DNA of 64,000 nucleotides from Pseudeuparius sepicola (lineage: Eukaryota > Arthropoda > Insecta > Coleoptera > Anthribidae). The translations under genes were made by a program, and so were the position numbers. Shown here piece after piece: positions 1 to 57,036 of the stretch. Where the stretch lies: NCBI GenBank assembly GCA_963920635.1, contig OY987302.1, forward strand, positions 31,037,278 to 31,101,277. The letters are read 5' to 3'. The notes beneath the pieces are model-generated. The model searched no databases. It was given only the letters and a program-made list of their open reading frames with translations, and was not told the origin of the DNA. The number at the start of each line of letters is the position of its first letter. The first letter of the stretch is position 1.

Positions 1-1337
1 ATCCACCATATGGAAGATGCTGCCCCATGGCCCAACCATATTGATTATTTATGTCAAAGTATGACAGATATTTTGAAGGCTTGCTGGAGTCATAGTTAGA
101 CATGTATTTATTGTTTGCTGAAGATCGGCGTTTTGAACACTGAGAGAGTCCCCTACGGATGCCCTTCTCCACAAACATTACCATGTCTATATTGGTAAGC
201 AATTCCAGCTCGATTCCAGTATATTTTAACATACAGTCCCACGTATATCCAGGCAACGTATAATAGTGGGCGGGGTCTAACTTGTGCGATTTCATACAAC
301 TTTTTCTGAATTGTTCAAAGACGTCTGCCAGCAGAAGTATGTCCGTCTTCATATACAATTCTGCATATTCTCCAATATTTTTACAGCTAAACTCCCTCCA
401 TACTTTCTGGGCGTGAACGTACTCTTTTTCATATATTGATCTTTCCTCCAGCTTGTTGTAAAAACTATCTTTAGGCGGTAGATGATTGTGGTTTAATTTT
501 TCCATGGAATCTACATAATCATATGGGAAAACCCCCTTTCGAGTGAGAAGATTAAACTTATCATTAGGCAGGTATGAAAAATGACTTCGAAGAATGGAAT
601 AATCGCTGAGATTTGCAGCCAAGGATTCTAAGCTTTCCGCCGTAAACCGAAAACTATCAATGAACCTGAATTTAATAGCTGTTTCCGATATGTTTTTCGT
701 GAAGGAAATATACTTTTCCTTATTAAGGGGAAGCAGCTCAACCCCCCGTCAACATCTTTGGAAATGCTCTTAATCACAAAATGAGCGTCGTATCCGCTTA
801 AATTGTGAAATACCACGGGAACCACGTGACTATCCTGATAATTTATGTTGCAGTCTTCGTGCGCTGCACCCCTAAATTTCCCAGTTAGATGGTTATGCAT
901 TCGAACTTACCATTGGCCTTTTGTAAACAGTATACGTTTATGGATACATTATTCTGCTTCTCGAATCTAGGGACTTGTCTCAGTGTCATTGGAAAATGAA
1001 TTCCTTTTAGATTCAAGACGGCTGAGAGGTGGGGATACTTTGTCGCCCTTTGAGGGTTTTTATGGGTTTGGTGCAGAGCCGACACCACCGCCCACGCAAA
1101 GCACATTTCGTCATCGTTCTTAACGTTGATGCATGCTTTCTTTCTTTTAATTGGTGTAGGCAGTTCAATATATGATGAGGGTGTAAACTTGTTAATATTT
1201 ACTTGCAAATTTATGATGGCTGTGAGGTGACCCCCACTCTCACCGTCTTCCATTTCATCCAAATCTCGAAGAATGGGTTCTTGCACGTTTTTCAAAAACC
1301 ACTGAGGTATTTTGCTCGTCGGCTGCAAACATAACAT
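1..1337 (-). pseudogene. Polinton-type DNA polymerase B, partial and broken
   Basis: Minus-strand remnant of a protein-primed family B DNA polymerase from a Polinton other than the complete one downstream. The N-terminal part (885-1337) contains the conserved stretch KKACINVKNDDEMCFAWA. The piece 628-900 has the [13 protein letters not shown] (HNH-like) and [12 protein letters not shown] (Exo II-like) segments. The stretch below about 520 reads on through DILLLAD and the YTLPGYTWDCML region to the window edge, where the gene is cut off before the polymerase motifs. Between the N-terminal piece and the HNH-like piece a block that includes the Exo I region of intact copies is missing, so there is an internal deletion near 890 plus frameshifts. 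Identification is strong from side-by-side similarity with the second polB at 46868-51329. Confidence 0.85.
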
Positions 1338-4300
1338 CGAAACGTTCTCTTATTCATCATCTTATTCATCTGTACATTGAAGATTTCACTCTCCCTCCCT
1401 GGATTTTTGGTCGAAAATAAAAATTTGAAAGTGAAAATATACTAAAGGCAAAATACAACAAGGTCATTTTTATTAGTATTGTCTGTTTTCATTTAACCCA
1501 CAGAATGTATTAAATTAATTAATACTGCATTCATACAGGTCAGGTAGCAAGTTGTCGATCTCCCAAAATTATCAACACTTATACCGTCTTTCGCGATTTG
1601 TGCGAAAACGGCTAATCCAAATGCCATACTGTTTGATATGGTTGTAAAGTATTTTTTAAGAGCTTTCCAATGACGTATCACACATAGGGGGTTGCTACTT
1701 GAGATTATAAAGTTGGGGAAGGTGGGGGTATGGGGGTTGGAGGGGATGAGTCGCCGAATATATTATTTTGGTTCCCCTTTGTATCCTCAAACGGTTTTTA
1801 ATTTTTTTAAATATCTCTTTTATTTTCTGAGGTAAGTTTTCAAATTGTCACACCGTACAACATTGATTTATTGATTGAATATAAATTGGAAAATTGTTAT
1901 GTAATAATGTGTAATATAGATACATTTCTTGAAAAATATACTTATTATTGTCAAGTAACTAACTACCGATATGGTTTGGGGGTTCAAGCCCCTACAAGAT
2001 TTTGTAATTTCTTATACCTCTTTAAATCTTTCTGTGCTTTATATTTCTAAAAATTTTTGGCCTACGACGCATTTTAGAAATACCAAACACCTCTGCTTTA
2101 TTTTGTATAGCCGGTTTAAAAAGCAACGATTTTTATGGGCTCACACTAAAACAAATTTTGAAATTTCTATTGGTCACAGTTGTTCTATAAAAGAAGACTG
2201 AGTAAGACTTTCTTGGATACAAATGTTATGAGTCATAGTGAACAAAAAAAAATCCCAACTAAAAAGTTCTGCGTAAAAGTAAAAAATTTACAGGAAAGAT
2301 AATGCGCTTTTTAAAGTTAGCACCCGGTGGTATTCAAGCTAAAACCGGCGCTGATGAGTCACATTGTAGCTTACATCTTTTGTTCACATCACGAATTAAA
2401 GTGTCGTTTATACCCAACTATTCATTTAATTAATTTGTCAATCGGCTGTTTATGTAATGTACTTGTAATTGTATTTTTAATTATTAAAGGTAAAAATACT
2501 ATTTGGAAAACTTCAGCAAAGCGCAGTACTCTAGAACATGTTGCTGTAAGAAAGACGTCAGAAAGTTGCAATAAACTTGTTTCCTTCTACCAAATTTTCC
2601 AAACAGCGGTGTTAGAAAGGACCACGACTAATAAATATGTATACATATAAGCGTTGTTGTTCTATTAATTGTTTCCAGAGCCAATAATTTGAAAATAAAA
2701 TTTGAATTTCCGAATGAGTGCCTAACATAAAAATATGTCATTATGTAGAGCCGAATATTACCGAAAGCAAAGTGAAAAGTGTTAAATAATCCTGATCTAC
2801 AATAATCCATTAGTTGATGGTTGATTATGTTTTGTAGTTTGGGGAGATTTTAACTTTTTAGGTTAAATTTTTCCAAAAATTGTAAACATTGCTCATTTTT
2901 TACTTTTCAAATTAAATTACAAATGGATATGATTGCGCCAACCGCGCCGAAATCTTAATTACCTGGTGAAGTTGAATTTGCATAAAAAATAACCTTTTAT
3001 TGCCTCTGAACAATAACTATTTAACAAATTCCTTAGAATCGTTTTTTCTTCATTTCCTTGGTGACGAACCTGGTAATTAAGGCTCCATAATAACTTTCTT
3101 TATTTTTGTAACTATGTATAAGTTCAATCTGCAAAACAAATATTTATGCAAAGGATGACAACATTTCTATAAAAAACTAATATGTATTACATCATCCTCT
3201 CGGATCCAGGTGGTGCTTAATCGAACAAAAATCTTGTTGCTGTTGTTACTATTATTATTGCATTAACTCACAAAACATGTTTTAAACATAATGCGGTTAT
3301 TTTTTCAGAAACTTTGCAAACAAATCACTCATAAACGTTGTAAATATAAAACCATTATAATAAACAATCGATTTACTAAAAAATAAACAGAAGAAAGCTA
3401 GGTTAGGATTTCCTCATTCCATAAAATGAAAAAGTATGAGGCACCGCGATGATTGATTTGTAGCTAACTTAACCTCTGACCAGGAAAGCTTGATTTACAT
3501 GCGATCAAAAATTCGATCGGATTGATTTACATAGCACAAACACATTACGACGTAATTTTCGGGAAAAACCGATATATTTTGTAAACGATGAAAAAATAAT
3601 TTTCTAGTAAATAAAACATTTTAATTTTGTTTTGATTGCTTTACACTAATCTGAACCGCAAAAGTAAACAAATAATGCCAACTTTGAAAAACCGTCAACT
3701 TCTCTATTAGCGTTATAATAATTATTAATAGAAATAATAGAACTTATTTAAATTGATCGGTTAAAAAATACAATGCAGTGATAAATACCACCTCACCTTG
3801 ATAGACCCTTTAGAGGGTATATGGCGTCAGGGGAACTATGCCATTAGAGCACCCACTTAGAGAAAAATTTAAGCATCAAAATGAGGTAAGTTTAATACTT
3901 CTGGTTGTCAGATTATTTATAGAAATACAAAAATTTGCAAATTATATAACATTTTATACAAAATAACATATTTTTTATAAGAACCTAACCTCAAAGAACA
4001 GCAAGGTTAAGTATCCAAGGACCAACAGGGCTTTACCTATTAATACTGTGCTTGGACACAAGATTTATAAAAAGCTCAGATATTACTGCGAGCTAGAGAG
4101 GACCCTCAATGCAACAAACGGGCGTCAACTAATCAGCGGATCTGGGGGAAGGACGTTGTGTGAACCCAACCCCCGTTGTAGAGAGGTATTATAAAGTTCA
4201 CCGGCTTTCCCGAAGGCGATTGGCTGAGACATTAGAAGACGTCGCTTGTTTTTTGTGACAACATCAGTAATGTCCTAGGAAACTACCCCAAAAAAAAAAC

Positions 4301-25282: not shown

Positions 25283-25392
25283 AGTAGAGATACTAAGAGA
25301 GCACCAGACCAAACTTGTCGAAACCTGTCTGGTCTGGTACTCTCCTAGGTTTTGCCCGTCTCCCCACTCTCTCCCCACTCCTATTGAAACAG

Positions 25393-25401
25393 CTATATAG
25401 G
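25393..25401 (+). promoter_or_regulatory. TATA-like box of the TIR gene
   Basis: CTATATAGG, 46 bp before the ATG at 25447. The same box exists in the right TIR copy. Confidence 0.55.
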
Positions 25402-25446
25402 AGAGGTTCAACTAAGATCTCATCAGACACGCAGATCATTTACAAC

Positions 25447-25737
25447 ATGTCCTTCTTAAATAGTTTAAACAATTTGCTGGTGAAAAATCTGGTGAATGTT
25501 CGAGATTTGGAAGTAAATAAAAAATTTGAGATCCAGTGTTTTAAGAGAATAGATACCAAGTTTGGGGAAGAGGTAGTGGTGGAATTTGCCGACTTCAAGA
25601 CCATCCTGCCTCAGCGTTTTACGGAGCAATTAACTCAAGAGCGAATTGACGAATTGAATGGTGACGACAAAAGGTATTTTTTAACAAGCTTGGGGCCCGT
25701 CAGCAAGACTACAAATATTATATTTTCTGAAGCATGA
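25447..25737 (+). CDS. TIR-encoded small protein (left copy), KFG-type
   Basis: 96 aa, starting at the ATG after TACAAC. The frame is open further upstream, but that extension overlaps the TATA-like box and has no upstream ATG of its own, so the inner ATG is preferred. Central signature: FEIQCFKRIDTKFGEEVVVEF, then ILPQRF and RYFLTSLGP near the end. The alternation of hydrophobic strands suggests a small beta-rich fold; an OB-fold single-stranded DNA-binding role is possible but only inferred. Because it lies inside the TIR it is present twice, here and at 56582-56872, with three residue differences (D/N, E/K, S/G). A related protein is encoded by the palindromic element at 58851-59262. Confidence 0.75.
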   Translation: MSFLNSLNNLLVKNLVNVRDLEVNKKFEIQCFKRIDTKFGEEVVVEFADFKTILPQRFTEQLTQERIDELNGDDKRYFLTSLGPVSKTTNIIFSEA

Positions 25738-25875
25738 GCGAGAGACTGCGGCGATATATGGAGGCACTCGAAGAGCTGAGACGCTTGATTATTATGTATG
25801 AACTAACTAAAAAGTTTAGAAATGTAAAGTTGTGAAAATAAAAACTATTATTTGTTTGTGTGTTTTTTATTTCCC

Positions 25876-28353: not shown

Positions 28354-28460
28354 TTCAAGTTTGGCTAGTAGCCGACGGAGGGCATTTGCGAATGTAACAT
28401 GGCGTTATTTCCCAGTTTGGTCTTGATTTTCGCGGCAAATCGTTCAGCGTCTTTGTGAAA

Positions 28461-29777
28461 ATGCCGGAGTATTCGAACGCCGAGTTAACGGACATGGTTA
28501 TAATGTACGGGAGATGCGATGAAAGTGCACATCGAGCTGCAGCAGAATACCGTATTCGTTTTCCTAACAGGGCAAATATGCCTAACCCACGTACTTTCGT
28601 GAACATTGTACAACGTATGCGAAACACTGGTGTTTTGCAAGCTCGAAGGGGTGGGCCTGGAGGGCAAATGAACATGGACGATGTTGAGTCAGTGCTTGAT
28701 TTGGTGGAAGAGCAACCTTCCATAAGCACTACAGCTATTGCAAGGAGATTGGGAATATCTCAGAACAAGGCAAGTAAAATAAAACCAATAAAACTGACTT
28801 CTACCAAAGACTATCCCATGTGATGGGATTGTCTTTGCTTGCACCTAATACCTACATAAAATTTAAAATGTAACAATACAATTATTTACAGGCATGGAGG
28901 ATTCTAAGGGAAAACGGCCTTCACCCTTATCACATACAAAAGGTCCAAGCATTAGAAGCAAATGATTTTCCGGTGAGAATGACCTACTGCACTTGGCTAC
29001 GTGATCGAATCGCCCAAGACCCAAACTTTGTTTTCAACATTCTTTGGACAGACGAATGCTGCTTCACACGTGCTGGGGTTTTAAACACGTATGTAAATTT
29101 TTACTTACTTATAGCTTTCTCTCCTCCATATTATCTTTTTTATTTATTATAAAATTGGCTATGTCAATCCTAACGCCTTCGCCAAAATTGTGAATATTTC
29201 TAATTTTTGTTTTTTTTTTAGACACAACAGCCATATTTGGTCCGATGAGAACCCACATGCTGTTCGACGGTTTAATTTCCAACGTCGGTTTTCCATCAAT
29301 GTTTGGGCTGGAGTTTATGGAGATCGATTAATTGGACCATACATTCTACCGGAAAATTTAAACGCTGAACGATACTTGTATTTTCTGACAAATGTTTTGT
29401 TTGATAATTTGCCACTACAAGTACTGCATGACATGTGGTTTATGCACGATGGTGCACCAGCCCATTTTGCGAGACCTGTTCGTGCACTTTTAGACGACCA
29501 ATGCCCCAACCGTTGGATCGGAAGAGGAGGGCCAATTGCATGGCCGCCGCGATCACCAGACTTGAATCCAATGGATTTTTGTATTTGGGGATTCATGAAG
29601 GCGATTGTGTACGAGCAGGAAATCGACAACGAGCAGCAGTTACGTGAACGAATTGAAGGTGCAGCTGTTCAAATCCGAAATAATCATGGACTTTTTGCAC
29701 GTATCCGGACTTCTTTAGTTAACCGAGTGAATTTGTGCATCGAAGTTAACGGCGGCCTCTTTGAACAGCTACTGTAG
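28461..29777 (+). CDS. Mariner-family transposase, three exons
   Basis: Exons 28461-28769, 28892-29088 and 29222-29777. Intron 1 (28770-28891) has a GC-AG boundary, AAG|GCAAGT ... ACAG|GC, phase 0. Intron 2 (29089-29221) is GT-AG, phase 2. Both restore a continuous reading frame. The N-terminus is a helix-turn-helix DNA-binding region (AAAEYRIRFPNRANMP; STTAIARRLGISQNKAS). The catalytic triad is Asp in ILWTDECCF, Asp in MHDGAPAH and Asp in DLNPMDFCIWG, with 41 residues between the last two, matching the DD41D subgroup. The frame is intact, about 353 aa, the normal length for the family. It cuts and pastes the element by binding the TIRs. Confidence 0.88.
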
Positions 29778-30936: not shown

Positions 30937-30940
30937 TAGA
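30937..30940. repeat. Gypsy target duplication, left (TAGA)
   Basis: TAGA directly before the left LTR; the same four bases follow the right LTR at 39619-39622. Four-base duplications are typical for gypsy-group elements. Confidence 0.88.
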
Positions 30941-31353
30941 TGTTACGGGCGACGTGAAGACGAAGACTTTTTTAAAAAACTTTTATTCGAGTAACGCGAG
31001 TTACAGAGTTTCGGCTTAGACTACAGACAAGACTAGAATTCTTACTCTTACTTTACTAGGTCCTATTTATACAGATCTGTTATGCTGAGGTGTTGTGGTT
31101 CTCATGGGAAAAGAATATAAAGACAAAGGGAAGATCAAATTCTGCAATTCTTGCAGTAAGCAAGTTTTAACAATACTCAAAAGGAATATGATATGTTCTA
31201 GTAATCATTCTAGAACAATATACAATGGAAAATGATATCTGTGTAGTAAGCATCTTGAACAATAGAGAATGAGAACATAATATCCAACAGTAAACAGAAT
31301 CAAGGGTAAAAACAAGGTTATGATCAAGGTGATGCTTGAGGTCGGATATAACA
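30941..31353 (-). repeat. Gypsy 3' LTR
   Basis: 413 bp, plus strand TGTTACGGGC...GATATAACA. Same length as, and by eye identical to, 39206-39618. Confidence 0.95.
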
Positions 31354-31364
31354 CCTTCCCCCTT
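31354..31364 (-). other. Polypurine tract
   Basis: On the minus strand AAGGGGGAAGG sits directly against the 3' LTR, the expected place for plus-strand priming. Confidence 0.85.
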
Positions 31365-31401: not shown

Positions 31402-33318
31402 TTAGGCATATGTTTTAGTATTAGAATTTAGTTCAATTTCTTCTTCTTCGCGAGGTTCGTCCAATCTATACGAAGGTCTTCTTTTGACAGTAACAAATTT
31501 TCTTAAATTTTGAAAAACGCGATTTCGTGTTCTAGGAGGTTGTGGAGGATCGTCTCCGTTATTAGTAGTAATAATGCCTATTTTAATGTTCCTAGACTTT
31601 TTACATTTAAAATAAAAGTACACAATAATTAAAAGTATGATTAAAGCAATGGATAGATATGTCAATATTGGCGTATACTTATTTACAGTTGGTTCGTTAA
31701 TAATATTATCAAGATCCTTTGCATATTCGTCTAATTTATGCTTTGCGACATTTAAATCGTCATAATTAAATTTATTTAGTTGTAAAGGTTTTAAGTCAGG
31801 ATATTTTAGTTTATTTGGAGTTTCTTTGCAACATTCAAATGGTATATTAATTGGGTGAAATTTATAGGTTTGATTAGATTTATTTAAATTTTTCGTTTGA
31901 ATTTTAGTACTTCCAATATAAGCAATGCATTCAGATTTTAACGTTAAAATTGAAGTTTTGTCTAGCATTATAGTCAAAGGATTTTGATTTTTGCACTTAA
32001 TAGTTATAGGAAATATTTCACTTAAAATTATTAACCATTGATTCTCTTGAATCAATTGTACATTGTAACTTTCAATTGAAATTGTGACTATGTCACAAGT
32101 ATTAGGTAAATGGGTTTTTACCTCTAATAATTGAGCTTCACATCTTGAATGTGAGTCAATAGGAGTAGGATATAAATCTTTGCACATTATTAAATCAAAT
32201 GCTAGTTCTTTACAATTTTTTATATCATAGAGAATTACATAGAGAGTTGGGTCATCGCTTTTTGCTACAAATTTAGTATCAGTGGATACCATGTGATAAA
32301 ATCCAGTTTTATTGTCGAAAATTGGAATAGGATAAATTCTATAAAGAGTATACCATTGAGGTTCTACTAAAGGAATGTCTAATATAAAAACAAGTCTATT
32401 TTCTGTTTGAAAAACCTTTAGTTCTATAAAATCAAGATAAGTTGCAATATTTAGAAGTTGAGGAGTTAAGGGCAAATTATTTTTGTTTAAAGTTTGAGCG
32501 ATTATTTGCAAATGATGAACTAGGTCTTCAGGAGTTATAACTGACGTGTGAATGATATGTAGTTTTGCAAAAGTAATAGAGTTTAGAATGTCATTTAAAT
32601 TGCTTTCGATAAAGGTATAGGATTCTAGGAGTCTTTCGGCCATCTCTAAAACTTGTAATTTTGCAGTGTAATAATTAAAATTATCAGAAATGTTATAAAT
32701 GTAATTTTCGATTTGTTTTATGTCATTATTAAAAGTAATTTCATCAATTTGTAATTTGTTGATAGAGTCGTTAAAGTTTTTGATAACTGAAGTAGTTACT
32801 AAAATTTGTTTTTTCATTAATTTTTCTAATTCGTGTTCGTCTCTGTTAATTTTGTCGATACAATCGTTATAATACTGTCCGTCTGAAGCGTCTAAATTTC
32901 CGGTAATAAATTTCCAAACTGACCCTAAACCATTAATTAAACCTCTTTTATATCTTCTTACATCAATAGCTAATTCTTCAAATTTGAGCGCAATGTTTTC
33001 GGAAAGTTGATTTAGTAAAGTGAGATGTGACTTAACTTCGCTTAGAAAGGCGGCCATTCGTACGTCTTTTGGTTGAATTATAAATTGCATATTTTCTAAA
33101 ATTTTATTATTATTTTCGAATGTTGTTTTTAGAGATGAAATGTCTTTATATACCAATAAACTCCACTTGTCATTAGAAATTTTGAGTCCGGATTGCTCTT
33201 GATAGAACACGCCTATGGTGTTATTAATTGGTCGCAGTGTATATTGTGCCATAGCGGTAGCGAACAAAGAAAATCTGTAACGAAGTTTCAGAATTAGGAA
33301 CTTGGTTCGATATAACAA
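31402..33318 (-). CDS. env: Errantivirus-type envelope protein
   Basis: 638 aa. Residues 1-25 look like a signal peptide. At 122-125 there is a furin-type site RYKR followed by GLINGLGSVWKFITGNLD, the arrangement of insect errantivirus Env and the related baculovirus F proteins. A membrane anchor lies near 550-570 and a cytoplasmic tail of about 65 residues follows, basic then acidic. The start overlaps the last 25 bases of pol; whether it is made from a spliced mRNA, as in other errantiviruses, cannot be read here. The frame is intact. The known role of the family is membrane fusion and cell-to-cell spread; whether this copy is used is unknown. Confidence 0.9.
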   Translation of the reverse strand: MLYRTKFLILKLRYRFSLFATAMAQYTLRPINNTIGVFYQEQSGLKISNDKWSLLVYKDISSLKTTFENNNKILENMQFIIQPKDVRMAAFLSEVKSHLTLLNQLSENIALKFEELAIDVRRYKRGLINGLGSVWKFITGNLDASDGQYYNDCIDKINRDEHELEKLMKKQILVTTSVIKNFNDSINKLQIDEITFNNDIKQIENYIYNISDNFNYYTAKLQVLEMAERLLESYTFIESNLNDILNSITFAKLHIIHTSVITPEDLVHHLQIIAQTLNKNNLPLTPQLLNIATYLDFIELKVFQTENRLVFILDIPLVEPQWYTLYRIYPIPIFDNKTGFYHMVSTDTKFVAKSDDPTLYVILYDIKNCKELAFDLIMCKDLYPTPIDSHSRCEAQLLEVKTHLPNTCDIVTISIESYNVQLIQENQWLIILSEIFPITIKCKNQNPLTIMLDKTSILTLKSECIAYIGSTKIQTKNLNKSNQTYKFHPINIPFECCKETPNKLKYPDLKPLQLNKFNYDDLNVAKHKLDEYAKDLDNIINEPTVNKYTPILTYLSIALIILLIIVYFYFKCKKSRNIKIGIITTNNGDDPPQPPRTRNRVFQNLRKFVTVKRRPSYRLDEPREEEEIELNSNTKTYA

Positions 33319-36300
33319 ATTATTTTAATATCAGTATTTTTGAAAATATATTTGATCATAGGGAGAACTGTGTCCCAATCTAATTTGTCTAATCCACAAG
33401 CTAACTTGGGTATAGCTATAATTTTATCTTTTTCATCAGTGCTCTCGAGACAATTTGTTCGTAATTCCTTCAAGCAATTAAATAAATTAGCATAAGTTGG
33501 TTTATAATAGAAAAATTCTTTAGTTATTAAATAATAAATATTTCTTGTCGGAAGTTGAAGTACTGCTATTTCACCAATTGACTTATTTTGATTTTTTAGT
33601 TCATCTACGTGTCCAAATTTATTCTTAAATTCTTTTGCAATTCCTGCATTCATTTCTAAATCTTTAGATACACAGTGAGCTAATGAAATATTTTCAGGGG
33701 CATCAAATAAATTGCCCAGTTCAATGGAAACGTTATTATTTTCAATAGGGATTTTTCGATCTAGAGTATAAAAGAATTCTTTAACCGTTAGTTCTTCTTC
33801 TTGTAATTCGTGACATTTCTTTAGCATATCAAAATTCATTTTTGTAGTTTGGTTAGTAATTGGGTTATGTAGCAAGGCTGAATTCGTATAAATTTCTTTA
33901 ATTTTATAGGGTCCATTAAATTTGTTAGCTAGTTTATTTTTTATTTGGGACTCCTTGACATAAACCTTTTCTCCTACGCGAAATTGTCGCTGCTCCGAAA
34001 CGTGTGTATCAAATCGCTGTTTCGCCTTTTGTTTGCGCATATCCGTACGCTTTCTTGCAACTTCATAATAATGCTTTATTTTATTGTTTAAATCGCGAAC
34101 GTACTTAGAGATTAATTCTTGCTGATTATACAAAACTTCTGGAGGTCGAGACGAGGTGTGACCGAATAGCAATTCGTAAGGAGTAAAGCCGTGTGTTTTA
34201 TTTATAGAATTGTTATATGCTATACAAGCGTAAGGAAGCATTTGAAATGGGTGTTCGTTAGGATTTTCTGTACTACATGCGCGTATCATTTCAGTTAAGG
34301 TGGCATGAAATCTTTCTAAGGAGCCATTTGATTGCGGATGACTAACACTAGAGAAAGTTAATTTTATATTGTATAATTTACAAAGATCTTTCATTAATTG
34401 ATTATTAAATTCTTTACCTACATCGCAATGGATTCTTAAAGGAGTTCCAAAATGTTGAAAATAGAGTAAAAGAGCGTCTACTACAGGTCTCGCTGTTTTA
34501 TTAGGAAGTGCATAAGCTTGGGTAAATTTTGTTAGTTCGTCTCTTATGGTAAGGATATTATTTTTTACTGGGATTTCTAGGATGTCGATATTTATTCTTT
34601 CGAAAGGAGTTTTAGGAGTTTCGGTAATAACTAAGGGACTGTCCAAGTTTTGTCTACAAATTTTTGTCTTTTGGCAGATTTCGCACTGCCGAATAAATGT
34701 TTCGACGTCTTTAGTTAGTCCTGTCCAATTATATTTTTGTTTGATGCGTCTAATTGTTTCGTTTATTCCTCGATGTAAGTTTGTCTTGCCTGAATGAAAT
34801 TGATCTATTATTATAGGTATTTGGTCTTCGTCTGGTATAGTCACAATGTTCTGACAAATTGTTAGTTGGAAATTTTTATCTGAGAACAAAAAATTAAACA
34901 TTTCTAAAATTGGAAAATCTGGATTGTTTTCAATGTAATAAGTTTTATTTTCTTCGAATATATCTTTACTGTAATAAAGAGATATGAAGAGTACTTGTAT
35001 TGCGGTTTCAAAATTAAAAGGAACAGGAATTATATAATATTTTCTTTTAGCTACGGTTTGACTGGAAAGAACATTTGCTTTATTATAGTTAAAATCAGGA
35101 TTTAGCTCAAGTAAATCATCAATAACTTTTTCGTGAAGGTCTGTTAATTTGTCTTGTTGAAAAATTAGTACAATGTCCTTGTGTGTTTTGTCTAAAAGTT
35201 GATTATTTGTATATTGGATTTTAGAATAGTCGATCATTGAAGTCGTCTTGTATAGATCAAAAAATCTGTCAAATTCATTACAGATTATAGCAATTTCGTC
35301 AGTCTCATTATTGTCAATAGGCGGGTCAATGTCTTGAGGATTATCATGGGAAGTAGATGGTTCGTCTAGGGAAGTATGAAAGGAAACAGCTTCTTTTATA
35401 TGATTGATTTTGATTCGAGATAAAGCGTCGGCATTTCGATTAATTTTTCCAGGTTTATAAATTATTTGATAATTATATTCTTCTAATTTAAGTCGCCAAC
35501 GTGCTAAACGACTACCGGGATCTTTTATTGAGAAAAGCCAGGTTAAAGGTCTATGATCTGTAACCAATAAGAATTTTCGTCCGAAAAGATAAGGTCTATA
35601 GTTTTTTACGGCAGCAATTATTGCCAATAGTTCTTTCTCTATAACGCTATATTTCATTTCTGCTGGACTTAAGGTTCTTGAAAAGTATGCTATGGGAAGA
35701 TCATTTCCAACAGGTCCTTGCGAAAGTACCGCGCCTACAGCAAAAGCGCTTGCATCTGTAGTTAAAACAAATTCTTTTTCAAAATTAGGATATATTAGAA
35801 TTGGTGAAGTTATTAATGCATTTTTAAGTTGTTCGAAAGATTCACGACAATCTTTATCAAAAATAAATGGTACGTCTTTTCTTAAAAGTCGAGTTAAAGG
35901 CTTTGTCATTTTTGCGAAATTTGGAATAAACTTCCTGTAGTAACCAGTAAGACCCAAAAATTGTTTAATTTGTTTAGTATTGGCAGGTTGAGGAAAATCG
36001 ATAACAGCTTGTACTTTTTGTGGATTTGGTTTGACCCCTTCAGGTGTAATAACATGTCCTAAATAAATTACTTCTTTTCGTAAGAATTCACACTTATCTG
36101 GCTGTATTTTTAGATTTGAATTTCTTAATCTTTGAAAAACTTCAGTAATACGAGAGATATGTTCATTAATTGTGGAAGAATAAATAATAATGTCGTCCAT
36201 GTAAACTAAGCACTTTTCGTTTTGTATCCCCATTAGTATATTATCCATAACCCTCTGAAAGGTTGAGGGGGCATTACGAAGGCCAAAGGGCATACGTAAA

Positions 36301-37680
36301 TATTCGAAATGTCCATTTTCAACGGAAAAAGCAGTTTTCGAAATGTCTTCTGGATTCATTTCAATTTGTTGAAAACCAGAAGCCAAATCTAAAGTAGTAA
36401 AATAATGGCAATTACCCAACTGATCTAATATATCTGAAATATTAGGCAGTGGATACCTGTCATTAACTGTTAATTCATTTAATTTCCGATAATCAATTAC
36501 GATTCTCCATTTTTGTTTGCCTGAAGCATCTAATTTTTTTGGAACGACCCATACTGGGGACGACCATGGTGAAACAGAAGGTCTAATTATTCCTTGAGAA
36601 AGCATTTTATTAATTTGTGTTTTTACTTCTTCCTTGTGAACTTGTGGATATCGATAAGATTTAGTAAAAATTGGCTTAGCGTCGCCTGTATCGATAGTAT
36701 GTTTTATTTCATTAGTAAAACTTAAAAAATCTCCGTCAAAGTAAAATATATCTTCAAAATTCAAACATAAATTAGTAATTAATTCCTTTTCTTCTTCGTT
36801 TAAATGTTCTAGCCTTAATGATTCTTTTATTTCTTCTACTCTGCTTTTCGTTTTATTAAAATTACAAATAATATTAGCACTAGCGTTCGTTTCTTTAATG
36901 TAAGGCTCAAATTCAAATTCTTCGAAACAAATATCCTTTGTTATGGCATTAGCGTTTAATATTGTCGTATAAAAATTACCGTCTTCGTTTATTTTTACTA
37001 TAGCATTTGGCACGTATACCTTTTCTACTCGTTGTGCGCATAAAATCATTTCTTTATTCGTATATTTATTCGTATGAAACTTGCATATTTTTTCGCAACG
37101 CGGTTCTATCGTAACCTGATTTATATTATAATTCGTATTTTCGCTTTCAAAATTATTTATATTTTCCGTGTAATCGTTATTATTATTATTATTTCGTTCA
37201 TAAGCGTTTATATGAAGGCTATCGTATCTTTCGTCAACATTAACTTGTCTTTTATAAACAACTCGATTATTATTATCATTATTATTCGTTAACTCGTTTA
37301 ATTCATCTCCGTCTTTGAGTAATTCGTGTACCTTATAGTACGTAATTAATTGTTTATTCCTAAAATCTACTACTGCACCGTACCTTTCTAAAAAGTCAGC
37401 GCCTAAAATTCCGTCGAATCCTATATCTAGATCGCAAATATAAACTTTATGGGGAGAAAGAGGACCCGTAAAAGAAACAAATACCGCTTCAGTAATAGGA
37501 ATTGATTGGCCAGAAATACCTTTAATTTGAAAATTTTCTGGACATCGATTTAAAAATTGCTGAACCGTCTCTGGTTTGAAAATTGAAATACCAGCTCCTG
37601 TGTCAATTAAAATTTTGTACTTATCGGTATTATCTTTAATATAATATAAGTTACTATTGTCAACGGTATTTATGCAAACG
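33294..37680 (-). CDS. pol: Gypsy Pol polyprotein with C-terminal macrodomain
   Basis: The frame continues upstream of its first ATG (37049) and overlaps the end of gag in the -1 frame, so it is made by frameshifting. Domains in order: aspartic protease (LIDTGAGISIF, near 37590-37610); reverse transcriptase (WRIVIDYRKLNE, FTTLDLASGF, YMDD at about residues 283-286 counted from the ATG); RNase H (TDASAFAVG, about 430-545); integrase zinc domain (HRGINETIRRIKQKY...CEIC, about 765-800); integrase core with Asp in INIDILEIP, Asp in HCDVGKEF and Glu in GSLERFH. The last 145 residues (33297-33731) form a macrodomain: ELGNLFDAPENISLAHCVS, MNAGIAKEFKNKFG, NQNKSIGEIAVL, YYLIT, ACGLDKLDW. This matches the TARG1/OARD1 type that removes ADP-ribose from proteins. 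The frame is intact. Confidence 0.92.
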
Positions 37681-38866
37681 TTTGGTCCGTATTGGTCATA
37701 CCAAGATTTTTGAAGTTGGGAATAGGATTCTGGTCCGAGGCTGTTAATTGAAAATTTTCGCTTTGGCCCAGATAATGTTGTTGGGGAGTTCTATTTTGGT
37801 TATTTGGATTTGAATTTGGGAATCTAGGAGTAAAATTTTGATTAGATGGCTGGAAACCTGAATTATTATTAAAAGTTCTTGGGAAATTGTTTCTAGGAAT
37901 ATTATTAGAAAAATTTCTAGGAGGTTGATTTCTTGGTTGGAAGTTTTGAGGGTGATTCCTAGGTTGGAAAGAAGGAGTTTGAAAATTATTTTGCTGAGGA
38001 AAAGATGGTCTTTGATGGAACCTATTTTGGGAGAAATTATTTCTTTGGGAGTTATTTTGGAAATTGTTAGAGTAGTTAGAAGGATTTGGACCATTTCTGT
38101 AATAATTATTTTGATTTTTAGTTCGACATTCATTGATAGTATGTCCATTTCTTTTGCAATAATTACAAAATTTTGGAAAACTATTATTAGTTCTCTTAAC
38201 ATTATTATTGAAGACTGGTACACGATTTTGCCTCTGAAATTTTTGATTTTCAAAATAAGAAAGTTGCAATTCTCTCTTAATTAAAGCTATAGCATCCATA
38301 ATGTTGGGTGGATTGCTAGCACGAATTAGTTGCCCTATTCTTGGTTCTAAACCTGTCAAAACTGTATTTAGGCACATGCTATCGATTAATGTAGCTTGCG
38401 ATTCTTTTTGTTCCCTAGTGAGAAGGCTTTGTTTTCCTATTGCGGCATACATTTTCGAGCAGTGAGTTTGAACTCTGCCTACAAAAGTCAAAGCATTTTC
38501 ATTTTGGGATTGACACATTCTTTGTAAATCTTGAATTAATGAAGTTAGATCGCGAGGATCTCCGAAATGAACGTTAAGTAATTGTTTGATTTCCCTCCAG
38601 GTACTCAAGTCTCTTGAATTAATGAGTTGGGCTGCACGTCCCTTTAATTGATTTTTAATTTTTATAACAAGTAAAATGGCTTGGTCGCCAACAGTCATTT
38701 GCATGGCCCTATCACATGCAATGATAAAAGTATTTAAATTGATTTGATCCCCATCGTATTCAGGGATGATAGAAAATATTTCGCTTAATTTAAATGGTAC
38801 TTCGTCGTTATTTGAAGCGTTTGCTTCATTGTTTACATTAGAGTTTATAGCTTCGTTATTAGGCAT
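37670..38866 (-). CDS. gag: Gypsy Gag
   Basis: 398 aa. The N-terminal half is helical capsid-like sequence (LNTFIIACDRAMQM, LKGRAAQLINSRDLSTWREI, FVGRVQTHCSKMYAAIG). Then comes one CCHC zinc knuckle, CNYCKRNGHTINEC, and a long Asn/Pro/Gln/Phe-rich tail. It ends in the region where pol opens in the -1 frame. The protein packages the element RNA and builds the particle. The ATG at 38866 follows a leader of about 340 bases. Confidence 0.9.
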   Translation of the reverse strand: MPNNEAINSNVNNEANASNNDEVPFKLSEIFSIIPEYDGDQINLNTFIIACDRAMQMTVGDQAILLVIKIKNQLKGRAAQLINSRDLSTWREIKQLLNVHFGDPRDLTSLIQDLQRMCQSQNENALTFVGRVQTHCSKMYAAIGKQSLLTREQKESQATLIDSMCLNTVLTGLEPRIGQLIRASNPPNIMDAIALIKRELQLSYFENQKFQRQNRVPVFNNNVKRTNNSFPKFCNYCKRNGHTINECRTKNQNNYYRNGPNPSNYSNNFQNNSQRNNFSQNRFHQRPSFPQQNNFQTPSFQPRNHPQNFQPRNQPPRNFSNNIPRNNFPRTFNNNSGFQPSNQNFTPRFPNSNPNNQNRTPQQHYLGQSENFQLTASDQNPIPNFKNLGMTNTDQTFA

Positions 38867-39185
38867 GTTGAAATGAAAAGTTAATATCGTTATAACGTAG
38901 AAAGTTCAATAATAGCAACGTAGAAAGTTCAAAAAAAAATCACAAATAAAATTCACTTCAAGTTTTCACTTACAATAGAAGTAACTTCATGCTCGCTGGA
39001 TGTCGTTGATGCTGCTGTTGTTGCTGGATGCTGGCCTCAGGAGACTGTCCTTCTTAGTGCCTCCGGATCTTCCTGTCGAAGACCCTTTTCAGCTGGCTCC
39101 AATCGTAGTGGTGTGGTGACCCCCGAGGAGACTGTCCTTCTAAGTGCCTCCGGATCTCCCTCGTTGAAGACCCTTTTATCGAGGA
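38867..39185 (-). other. Gypsy leader with internal duplication
   Basis: Untranslated region between primer site and gag. A block of about 55 bp built on GAGACTGTCCTTCT and GTGCCTCCGGATCT occurs twice (about 39037-39092 and 39124-39182). Confidence 0.6.
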
Positions 39186-39202
39186 TCCCACTTCTGACAC
39201 CA
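39186..39202 (-). other. Primer-binding site complementary to tRNA-Leu
   Basis: On the minus strand TGGTGTCAGAAGTGGGA lies three bases from the 5' LTR. It is complementary to the 3' end of a tRNA-Leu (CCCACTTCTGACACCA). Confidence 0.8.
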
Positions 39203-39205
39203 AAT

Positions 39206-39618
39206 TGTTACGGGCGACGTGAAGACGAAGACTTTTTTAAAAAACTTTTATTCGAGTAACGCGAGTTACAGAGTTTCGGCTTAGACTACAGACAAGACTA
39301 GAATTCTTACTCTTACTTTACTAGGTCCTATTTATACAGATCTGTTATGCTGAGGTGTTGTGGTTCTCATGGGAAAAGAATATAAAGACAAAGGGAAGAT
39401 CAAATTCTGCAATTCTTGCAGTAAGCAAGTTTTAACAATACTCAAAAGGAATATGATATGTTCTAGTAATCATTCTAGAACAATATACAATGGAAAATGA
39501 TATCTGTGTAGTAAGCATCTTGAACAATAGAGAATGAGAACATAATATCCAACAGTAAACAGAATCAAGGGTAAAAACAAGGTTATGATCAAGGTGATGC
39601 TTGAGGTCGGATATAACA
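39206..39618 (-). repeat. Gypsy 5' LTR
   Basis: 413 bp, by eye identical to 30941-31353. TG...CA ends, followed by TAGA (39619-39622). Confidence 0.95.
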
Positions 39619-40239
39619 TAGATGTTGGTGTCAACAAATTTTATTATATAAATGCTGATGGGTATCGCAAGTGTTTAGCCCACAGGCTCGTACGAAATTG
39701 AGGCCCTAGAAAAGTACATAGTTGGTGATTTAAGAAAGGAGGAGTCTGATCAGAAAAATCCAATTTTAATAAAAGCCAATAACAGTACTTTAAAGTGTGA
39801 AATTTACAGCGATAAATATACAGTAGATTTTCTACCAGCAGACTCTATTGCTCATGTGTTAGGATTTTCTCCTAGTCTATTAGAGTCTGGACAATTGCAT
39901 ACTTCTGATATATCTGTAAACATCGTGAAGGTCAGAACTATACATATAGATTGTAACGTAACGTAACATCTGGAGCATACTATAAAAATCAACCAACTCA
40001 TACGATTTACGAGTTTGCAGTTAGCAGCGATCCTGGTTACGCTATAGACGAGTCTCCGAAAAATCTTGTGTACATGCCAGTTGCAAAGTGTGAGATTAAT
40101 AATTTGACTGTAAATATTCTCGATCAGAACTCTCAACCTGTAAATTTTAGAGGTGAGGAAATAATTGTACGGTTGGAGTTGAAGCGTGTATGAAATTTTT
40201 GTGAAAATGGTTTTGGTTTTTGATGACAAATATCAACCG

Positions 40240-41626: not shown

Positions 41627-42052
41627 ATGTTGCTGAGTTTGGGTGACATTATTTTGTTCTCATTAATAAATAATGTGTTCTATATTTACAACCCTGAAGA
41701 TGCTAAGGTATCTATTTGCGAACAGGATAAAAGATGTTTCCCATTTAAAACGGTAGTTGAAAAAATTTCGGTAGCAAGACTGCCTAAAAATGCTACTCAG
41801 TTTAAACTTCGAGCAGTATTCCAAAATCATACGATTGCTGAAAGTGTGTGGAGGGAGGTCCTACCTTCCACCACGCCCACAATGGCCACACCCAGAGACC
41901 TCAGTCAAGAACAACATATAAAAGACCTCGCTTTCGTGCCACTAATTTACTACATTACTATATGTTCTTCATTGCTAGTAGCAAAATTATTTATTGAAAT
42001 AGTAAGAGTATTACTGAATGAGCGATGGAGCATAATTACGAGAGTCTTATAA
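41627..42052 (+). CDS. Putative type I membrane protein, unknown family
   Basis: 141 aa. The N-terminal 20 residues are hydrophobic, like a signal peptide (LLSLGDIILFSLINNVFYIY). The middle part has two Cys and two possible N-glycosylation sites (NAT, NHT), a Ser/Thr/Pro-rich stretch, then a membrane segment around 108-130 (LAFVPLIYYITICSSLLVAK) and a short basic tail. I do not recognise the family. It has its own TATA box, follows the major capsid gene, and its end overlaps the start of the IAP gene by 28 bases in another frame. The layout suggests a virion or host-membrane glycoprotein; that is inference. Confidence 0.6.
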   Translation: MLLSLGDIILFSLINNVFYIYNPEDAKVSICEQDKRCFPFKTVVEKISVARLPKNATQFKLRAVFQNHTIAESVWREVLPSTTPTMATPRDLSQEQHIKDLAFVPLIYYITICSSLLVAKLFIEIVRVLLNERWSIITRVL

Positions 42053-42447
42053 GAACGTTTGAAAACTGGTCAAGCCCCCTATCATCAGAGAAGCTTGCCC
42101 GAGCAGGATTTTTTTATACGAATTACGAAGATGTTGTCCGGTGTCCATTTTGCAATATTGAAGGATATAAATGGGAAAAGGATGATGATCCATGGCAAGA
42201 CCATGCTATCTGGAGTCCCAGTTGTCCATTTATTAAAGGTGAAATCAAGCCTGTGGACATCCCACCTGAAAAAGTAAATAACACCAATCCAGACTTTTTA
42301 TGTATAGTATGCTACTGCAAAAACATAGAAGTCTTGCTGGTTCCATGTGGACATTTGGCATGCTATATGAGTTGTGCAAACTCCATGGAGAAGTGCCCGC
42401 TGTGTAGGAGTATTGTGCAGCAGAAGATTCGAGCTTACATGCCTTAA
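42025..42447 (+). CDS. iap: Inhibitor of apoptosis (BIR-RING)
   Basis: 140 aa. One BIR domain (about residues 8-70) has the zinc ligands CPFC...HAIWSPSC in CX2CX16HX6C spacing, preceded by FENWSSPLSSEKLARAGFFY. A C-terminal RING finger follows (about 92-130, CIVCYCKN...VPCGHLACYMSC...CPLC, C3HC4). This is the compact layout of baculovirus-type IAPs and of the smallest insect ones; these bind caspases or IAP antagonists and act as ubiquitin ligases. The frame is intact. Its place inside a virus-like element suggests a role in keeping the host cell alive during replication, which is inference. It starts within the end of the upstream membrane-protein gene. Confidence 0.92.
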   Translation: MEHNYESLIRTFENWSSPLSSEKLARAGFFYTNYEDVVRCPFCNIEGYKWEKDDDPWQDHAIWSPSCPFIKGEIKPVDIPPEKVNNTNPDFLCIVCYCKNIEVLLVPCGHLACYMSCANSMEKCPLCRSIVQQKIRAYMP

Positions 42448-56449: not shown

Positions 56450-57036
56450 TAAAAAACACACAAACAAATAACAGTTTTTATTTTCACAACTTTACATTTC
56501 TAAACTTTTTAGTTAGTTCATACATAATAATCAAGCGTCTCAGCTCTTCGAGTGGCTCCATATATCGCCGCAGTCTCTCGCTCATGCTTCAGAAAATATA
56601 ATATTTGTAGTCTTGCCGACGGGCCCCAAGCTTGTTAAAAAATACCTTTTGTCGTCACCATTCAATTCGTCAATTCGCTCTTGAGTTAATTGCTCCGTAA
56701 AACGCTGAGGCAGGATGGTCTTGAAGTCGGCAAATTCCACCACTACCTTTTCCCCAAACTTTGTATTTATTCTCTTAAAACACTGGATCTCAAATTTTTT
56801 ATTTACTTCCAAATCTCGAACATTCACCAGATTTTTCACCAGCAAATTGTTTAAACTATTTAAGAAGGACATGTTGTAAATGATCTGCGTGTCTGATGAG
56901 ATCTTAGTTGAACCTCTCCTATATAGCTGTTTCAGTAGGAGTGGGGAGAGAGTGGGGAGACGGGCAAAACCTAGGAGAGTACCAGACCAGACAGGTTTCG
57001 ACAAGTTTGGTCTGGTGCTCTCTTAGTATCTCTACT
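56450..57036 (-). repeat. Polinton TIR, right
   Basis: Reverse complement of 25283-25869 over 587 bp, ending in CT, followed by ATTACC. Confidence 0.93.
56582..56872 (-). CDS. TIR-encoded small protein (right copy), KFG-type
   Basis: 96 aa, second copy of the gene at 25447-25737, facing the opposite way. It differs by Asn for Asp and Lys for Glu in the KFG segment (KRINTKFGEKVVVEF) and Gly for Ser near the end (GPVGKTTN). The frame is intact. Both copies read inward from the element ends. Confidence 0.75.
   Translation of the reverse strand: MSFLNSLNNLLVKNLVNVRDLEVNKKFEIQCFKRINTKFGEKVVVEFADFKTILPQRFTEQLTQERIDELNGDDKRYFLTSLGPVGKTTNIIFSEA

What the first reader, a model, noticed from the sequence alone, without database searches (positions are those of the whole stretch)
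33297..33731. Gypsy Pol ends in a TARG1/OARD1-like macrodomain
Seen: the last ~145 residues of an intact errantivirus-type Pol read LGNLFDAPENISLAHCVS, MNAGIAKEFKNKFG, NQNKSIGEIAVL, YYLIT, ACGLDKLDW. Known: this order matches the TARG1/OARD1 branch of macrodomains, which hydrolyse ADP-ribose from Glu/Asp; macrodomains in RNA viruses counter host PARP defences. Inferred: an LTR retrotransposon has captured an ADP-ribose eraser and makes it as part of Pol, possibly against PARP-based silencing or for DNA-repair steps at integration. The domain is in frame, next to integrase, and env overlaps its last codons, so it is a stable part of the element. The key Asp of the GLD segment and a Lys in the NQxK segment are present.
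Basis: partly seen in the sequence, partly recalled or inferred. Interest (0 to 1): 0.92.

Follow-up and report, generated by a model that had tools for sequence, protein, structure and literature searches.

The report
Insect retrovirus Pol with ADP-ribose eraser
Retrovirus-like jumping genes in an insect-like genome carry, fused to their replication enzymes, a domain that in humans strips the ADP-ribose tag from other molecules, and related elements carry it in different places, which suggests that jumping genes and their hosts may fight over this tag.

Summary

Not a one-off: six other retroelement Pols have it, and this 769-Mb genome holds several families carrying it before RT, between RNase H and integrase, or after integrase. 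dN/dS is 0.08-0.50 in 27 of 27 pairs with dS under 1. The three closest Pols found lack it at the C-terminus; its domain groups with distant elements, not with its RT neighbours D, F, G (AU p 0.0013), so I infer exchange between retroelements. A region between RNase H and integrase models as a decayed macrodomain (likely, not shown). Likely role: an ADP-ribosyl hydrolase carried in Gag-Pol against host PARP. Activity and target are untested. Fish retroviruses with macro-domain ORFs are a precedent.

The parts
33297..33731 (-). TARG1/OARD1-type macrodomain, Pol residues 1107-1251
33519..33521 (-). codon of Pol K1177, aligned with TARG1 catalytic K84
   Evidence: alignment, (K in 58 of 58 aligned rows), coordinates; K84 as catalytic residue from PMC8501950 passages
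33387..33389 (-). codon of Pol D1221, aligned with TARG1 D125 (role recalled)
   Evidence: alignment, (D in 57 of 58 aligned rows)
33732..33788 (-). linker before the macrodomain, alignable with linkers of other retroelement macrodomains (a hydrophobic residue, two residues, then F/Y; here V-K-E-F)
   Evidence: pattern seen by eye, no significance test
34848..35231 (-). probable degenerate TARG1-like macrodomain between RNase H and integrase, Pol residues 607-734; the stretches at both catalytic positions are not kept (by eye)
35232..35288 (-). helical linker before the degenerate macrodomain, similar in pattern to the linker at 33732-33788
   Evidence: by eye
33294..37049 (-). pol from its first ATG (1251 aa plus stop); the open frame runs on to 37790 and holds a protease-like stretch at about 37332-37652
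36048..36542 (-). reverse transcriptase (PF00078 stretch)
35475..35786 (-). RNase H (PF17917 stretch)
34662..34829 (-). integrase zinc-binding domain (PF17921 stretch)
34335..34610 (-). integrase core (PF00665 stretch)
37670..38866 (-). gag
   Evidence: weak PF03732 match, E 0.005, below its cut-off
31402..33318 (-). env, baculovirus F-like (PF12259, E 3e-39)
39206..39618 (-). 5' LTR (element orientation)
30941..31353 (-). 3' LTR, identical to the 5' LTR over 413 bp
39185..39202 (-). putative tRNA primer-binding site (by eye; label recalled)
31354..31364 (-). purine-rich tract before the 3' LTR
30937..30940 (.). target-site duplication TAGA, left
39619..39622 (.). target-site duplication TAGA, right

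Best explanation
SHOWN by sequence and models: the Pol of this insect-type errantivirus ends in a TARG1-type macrodomain with both catalytic positions kept; the same domain with a similar linker sits at other places in other LTR-element families of this genome and in beetle elements; between families it evolves under purifying selection. INFERRED: the domain is an enzyme that removes ADP-ribose from Asp/Glu of proteins and possibly from DNA or RNA; as part of Gag-Pol it is packaged with RT and integrase and removes marks that host PARPs (in insects most likely PARP-1, which senses DNA ends) put on element cDNA, integrase, or chromatin at the insertion. It behaves as a cassette: an older copy between RNase H and integrase has probably decayed into a non-catalytic macrodomain, and the active domain was gained again at a new site from another retroelement, here after integrase, in related families before RT.
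For: Family and fold. Catalytic positions: (K 58 of 58, D 57 of 58 rows). Recurrence: 6 other Pols among 89 candidates (P0003 is from Harmonia axyridis) plus fragments named in the beetles Rhamnusium bicolor, Molorchus minor and Brassicogethes aeneus. Several families in this genome with the domain in three positions. Purifying selection: 27 of 27 pairs with dS under 1 have dN/dS 0.08-0.50. Retroelement domains group together (9 rows, 87/75; 16 rows, 81/95). Gain at this site: the three closest Pols found (67-69% identical) end just before it; the AU test rejects the window's domain grouping with those of D, F and G (p 0.0013), and it groups with P0004 and P0005 (91/86) or with P0005 alone (84/79), which are distant by RT and integrase. 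Decayed copy. PARP link: in Drosophila parp-1 mutants springer, a gypsy-clade element, rose 2505-fold; [quoted passage not shown]
Confidence: 0.6

Rival explanations
1. Reader, not eraser: the domain binds ADP-ribose or PAR and tethers the integration complex to PARP-marked chromatin or DNA breaks, choosing target sites as chromodomains do in other Gypsy elements (recalled).
For: It is next to integrase in the window and near it in the families with the RNase H-integrase position; the older RNase H-integrase copy persists without its catalytic residues. For chikungunya virus in mosquitoes the title of PMC12632316 (search listing) states that binding and not hydrolysis is critical.
Against: Both catalytic positions are kept in 58 of 58 and 57 of 58 rows, whereas a pure reader need not keep them. 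In families D, F and G the domain lies before RT, and in B no integrase was found.
Confidence: 0.2
2. Metabolite enzyme: it clears free ADP-ribose derivatives such as ADP-ribose-1''-phosphate or O-acetyl-ADP-ribose, with no defence role.
Against: A metabolite activity would work in trans and gives no clear reason for carriage in Pol or for exchange between elements (inference).
Confidence: 0.08
3. Neutral passenger: a host TARG1 fragment caught by chance and carried along.
For: Retroelements do pick up host sequence (recalled); the three closest Pols found do without the domain.
Against: dN/dS well below 1 between families, kept catalytic positions, several families, three positions.
Confidence: 0.04
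4. Repair helper: it removes ADP-ribose from cDNA ends or from integrase at strand-transfer gaps so that integration is completed, without any arms race.
For: TARG1 acts in the DNA damage response (start of the abstract of PMC10933786 in the listing) and removes ADP-ribose from DNA (PMC8501950 passages).
Against: Loss and regain and exchange between elements fit a changing opponent better (inference); family B keeps the domain while no RT or integrase was found in it.
Confidence: 0.2

Closest known systems
Human TARG1/OARD1/C6orf130 and its animal orthologues
   Different: The host protein is a small stand-alone enzyme; here it is fused to Pol of an LTR element with a retroelement-type linker, and retroelement domains form their own group in trees.
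Errantiviruses (Metaviridae; gypsy-like insect endogenous retroviruses)
   Same: gag, pol (PR, RT, RNase H, integrase), F-type env PF12259, LTRs, 4-bp target duplication.
   Different: In the two insect ERV papers that I searched by term the word stem 'macro' does not occur in the main text (PMC13172572, PMC12992720). No named errantivirus sequence was compared.
Fish epsilon-like endogenous retroviruses with macro-domain ORFs (Basta et al. 2009)
   Same: A retroelement with LTRs that carries a macro domain (one passage in PMC4977317).
   Different: There they are additional open reading frames in vertebrate retroviruses; here the domain is inside Pol of an insect Metaviridae-type element. The original paper is not held, so branch and catalytic residues were not compared.
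Macrodomains of RNA viruses (coronavirus Mac1, alphavirus nsP3)
   Same: Same fold, domain of a replicase polyprotein (recalled), and loss of catalysis in some copies or lineages (PMC10221186 passages).
DarG antitoxin macrodomain
   Different: Bacterial toxin-antitoxin partner; no relation to retroelements.

Membership tests
TARG1/OARD1 macrodomain family | sequence closest to TARG1 among solved macrodomains | tested here: met
   5 TARG1 sequences at E about 1e-36, the only other listed chain E 0.1
TARG1/OARD1 macrodomain family | macro fold | tested here: met
   (predicted model)
TARG1/OARD1 macrodomain family | catalytic lysine (K84) and aspartate (D125) | tested here: met
   K1177 and D1221 align; K84 from PMC8501950, D125 recalled
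TARG1/OARD1 macrodomain family | ADP-ribosyl hydrolase activity | not testable with these tools
   needs an enzyme assay
Errantivirus-type LTR element | LTRs, gag, pol with RT-RNase H-integrase, F-type env | tested here: met
   (gag match weak)
Errantivirus-type LTR element | phylogenetic place within the genus by RT with named members | not tested
   no named errantivirus sequences were at hand; trees hold only relatives and the own genome
Degenerate macrodomain (Pol 607-734) | macro fold | tested here: inconclusive
Degenerate macrodomain (Pol 607-734) | detectable sequence homology to active macrodomains | tested here: inconclusive
   hhalign probability 19%, score 27.0, above 60 of 60 column shuffles (max 22.1), over 19 columns only; no Pfam Macro match there
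Viral anti-PARP macrodomain | reverses host antiviral ADP-ribosylation | not testable with these tools
   no assay

The most novel reading that the evidence does not exclude
Insect errantiviruses are in a long ADP-ribose arms race: a TARG1 domain was taken into Pol once, long ago; it decayed in place into a non-catalytic structural domain before integrase in some lineages, and active domains with their linker were then passed again and again between elements by recombination into new Pol sites, even into non-autonomous elements that have lost RT and integrase. The macrodomain would then be a shared, exchangeable counter-defence module of insect retroviruses, and PARP-1 a main restriction factor against them.
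Probability: 0.3. Interest if true: 0.92.

Novelty: new variant of a known kind. Interest (0 to 1): 0.8.

Why it matters
Macrodomains are known as PARP counter-measures of RNA viruses, and fish retroviruses with macro-domain ORFs have been mentioned, but among the papers listed by my searches (open-licence papers only, and for the first five only the best 20 of 94 to 3,893 papers) I recognised none that reports a TARG1-type domain inside Pol of insect LTR elements. If the domain is active, it makes a testable case that PARP-1 or DNA/RNA ADP-ribosylation restricts retroelements in insects, gives a natural experiment (families with an active domain in three positions, and Pols with only the probable decayed one), and provides new TARG1-branch enzymes fused to a reverse transcriptase.

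Tried and rejected
Looking for relatives in viral contigs with P0001, P0007 and the Pol alignment gave none that tblastn confirmed. Pairwise BLAST between the window's decayed region and P0003 showed nothing of note (E 0.079 at best); P0003's second copy itself is clearly a decayed macrodomain (hhalign 95-96%, E 3e-8 and 1.6e-9). Comparing 30 copies of the window family for selection is uninformative: those 30 loci were chosen by the search as best protein matches, so their lack of amino-acid change is by construction. A host TARG1 gene was not identified: the capped list is filled largely by known retroelement families, so this is inconclusive. The host species is not identified; TTAGG arrays (insect telomere motif recalled) and the beetle origin of the named retroelement relatives suggest an insect, possibly a beetle.

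Caveats on counts: the genome search scores only the best 150 candidates, so copy numbers are lower bounds and biased to intact copies. The 40 domain places fetched were picked by me from the 150 rows for diversity; the dN/dS used 17 representatives chosen by me from the 68 rows, and L038 (one stop) was not among them. Family H was seen in one piece in which RT was not found, so its position relative to RT is open; L108 of family C also showed no RT match. Family F was seen in one copy, whose catalytic Asp is lost. In the RT tree the branch of A with P0061 has 90/92 and the wider fork of 11 rows is unresolved, so D, F and G are RT neighbours, not proven sisters, without D, F and G, gives 97/99 for A with P0060-P0062. 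The linker pattern is F/Y-x-x-F/Y in 7 of 8 families; the window's own has V in the first place.
Full report
WHAT IS THERE. The element lies on the minus strand between two identical 413-bp LTRs (30941-31353, 39206-39618) with TAGA on both outer sides. It has gag (37670-38866), an open pol frame (33294-37790, 1498 codons; 1251 aa from the first ATG) and env (31402-33318). Pfam finds RT, RNase H, integrase zinc and core domains and, at the end of Pol, Macro; env is a baculovirus F-like protein, PF12259, E 3e-39; the gag match is weak. This is the plan of an insect errantivirus (recalled). It is nested in a Polinton-like element.

NOT A ONE-OFF. A search of about 5.8 billion proteins with this part of Pol gave 6 proteins at E 1e-3 or better among 89 candidates, each with RT and integrase domains. 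One is from Harmonia axyridis; five are unnamed. In five of six the domain lies between RNase H and integrase; in P0007 it is C-terminal, followed by a weak CCCH zinc-finger match. P0003 has a second, decayed copy right after the first (hhalign 96%, E 1.6e-9 over 145 columns). The search with the domain alone gave 51 proteins: animal OARD1 proteins, many unnamed ones, and pieces from the beetles Rhamnusium bicolor (with what looks like an RNase H tail in front, by eye), Molorchus minor and Brassicogethes aeneus.

IN THE OWN GENOME (769 Mb, 16 contigs). With the window's domain 150 of 907 first-look candidates were scored, all listed at 99% identity or more, 149 without a stop in the domain. 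With the domain of a second family 150 of 886 were scored and showed further families. From pieces of representative copies: family A (window): PR-RT-RNase H-[decayed]-IN-MACRO; D, F and G: gag-PR-MACRO-RT-RNase H-[decayed]-IN; C (L099) and E: RT-RNase H-MACRO-IN; H: MACRO before IN, RT not found in the piece. Family B carries gag, PR and MACRO, and no RT, RNase H or integrase was found in L038 (between LTRs 96.6% identical, without an env match) and L102-L104 (with an env match downstream); L037, of the same family, joins an RNase H-decayed-integrase piece. A linker with the pattern F/Y-x-x-F/Y precedes the domain in 7 of the 8 families looked at, and V-x-x-F in the window's (by eye).

SELECTION. 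Nei-Gojobori estimates on 17 representatives: 27 pairs have dS below 1, and all 27 have dN/dS between 0.08 and 0.50 (for example A-A2 0.17, B-B3 0.16, C-C61 0.20, C-H 0.16; highest A-G 0.50). The pairs are not independent and open copies were preferred, but the level is that of a constrained protein.

HISTORY. In a tree of 52 domains the 9 retroelement rows fall on one side of a branch (87/75); in a second tree 16 retroelement rows do (81/95). A single entry into retroelements is therefore possible, not proven. The three closest Pols found (P0060-P0062, 67-69% identical; 3 hits among 223 candidates of a search with the inter-domain region) stop where the macrodomain begins. By RT the window groups with them (97/99) and is close to D, F and G (RT identity 74-78% against 63% for C and E), though a fork of 11 rows is unresolved. 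By the domain it groups with P0004 and P0005 (91/86) or with P0005 alone (84/79, where P0004 goes with P0006-P0008 at 84/66); both are distant by RT and integrase. The AU test rejects a grouping of its domain with those of D, F and G (p 0.0013). The simplest reading is that the window's lineage received domain and linker from another errantivirus by recombination, at a new place. An older presence with loss in the relatives remains possible.

HOW IT PROBABLY WORKS. Steps shown: family, predicted fold, catalytic positions, carriage in Pol, selection. Steps inferred: enzymatic activity (about 0.8), packaging with RT and integrase, and a target placed by a host PARP (about 0.55). [quoted passage not shown] three of eight significant ones fell, ten more rose without passing the FDR limit, and the effect may be indirect (PMC7712786 passages). 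Insects lack most vertebrate PARPs (PMC10221186 passages), so the vertebrate model cannot simply be carried over, and for chikungunya virus in mosquitoes a title reports that binding rather than hydrolysis is critical (PMC12632316, listing). TARG1 acts on protein Asp/Glu and on thymidine-linked ADP-ribose in DNA (PMC8501950 passages), both of which could occur on cDNA and integration intermediates. Family B suggests that the benefit does not need fusion to RT or integrase.

KNOWN OR NEW. A review states that some ray-finned fish epsilon-like retroviruses have extra ORFs for macro domain proteins (PMC4977317, one passage; original not held). In literature searches I recognised, from titles and abstract starts, no paper reporting a macrodomain in Pol of insect LTR elements; two recent insect ERV papers do not contain the stem 'macro' in the main text. 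The library holds only open-licence papers and the longer lists were capped. I file it as a new variant of a known kind.

Noticed in passing
window 25283-57036: A Polinton/Maverick-like element with 587-bp inverted ends 98.8% identical (25283-25869 and 56450-57036): type B DNA polymerase, integrase with a chromodomain match below its cut-off, A32-like ATPase, double-jelly-roll capsid domain, phospholipase A2-like ORF, and a BIR plus RING (IAP-like) gene at 42022-42447. The LTR element and a mariner-like transposase (28398-29777; DDE match below its cut-off) are inserted in it.
   Followed up: partly
G000 C9:4192890-4271556: Fourteen matches to the decayed-domain region at exact steps of 6013 bp, each 99% identical: a tandem array of part of the retroelement.
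   Followed up: no
L037 about 1415-1428: Junction where a family B copy (gag-PR-macro) passes within some 13 bases into an RNase H-decayed macrodomain-integrase piece of a window-like element; possibly a template-switch chimaera or an internal deletion of RT.
   Followed up: partly
P0007 residues 1182-1354 and P0038 (Brassicogethes aeneus): A retroelement-type macrodomain followed by a CCCH zinc finger (Pfam match of P0007 below the cut-off; P0038 by eye), an arrangement that could bind RNA.
   Followed up: no
P0003 residues 569-745 (Harmonia axyridis LOC123684075): A tandem second macrodomain with the CGLD segment lost, right after an intact one and before integrase.
   Followed up: partly
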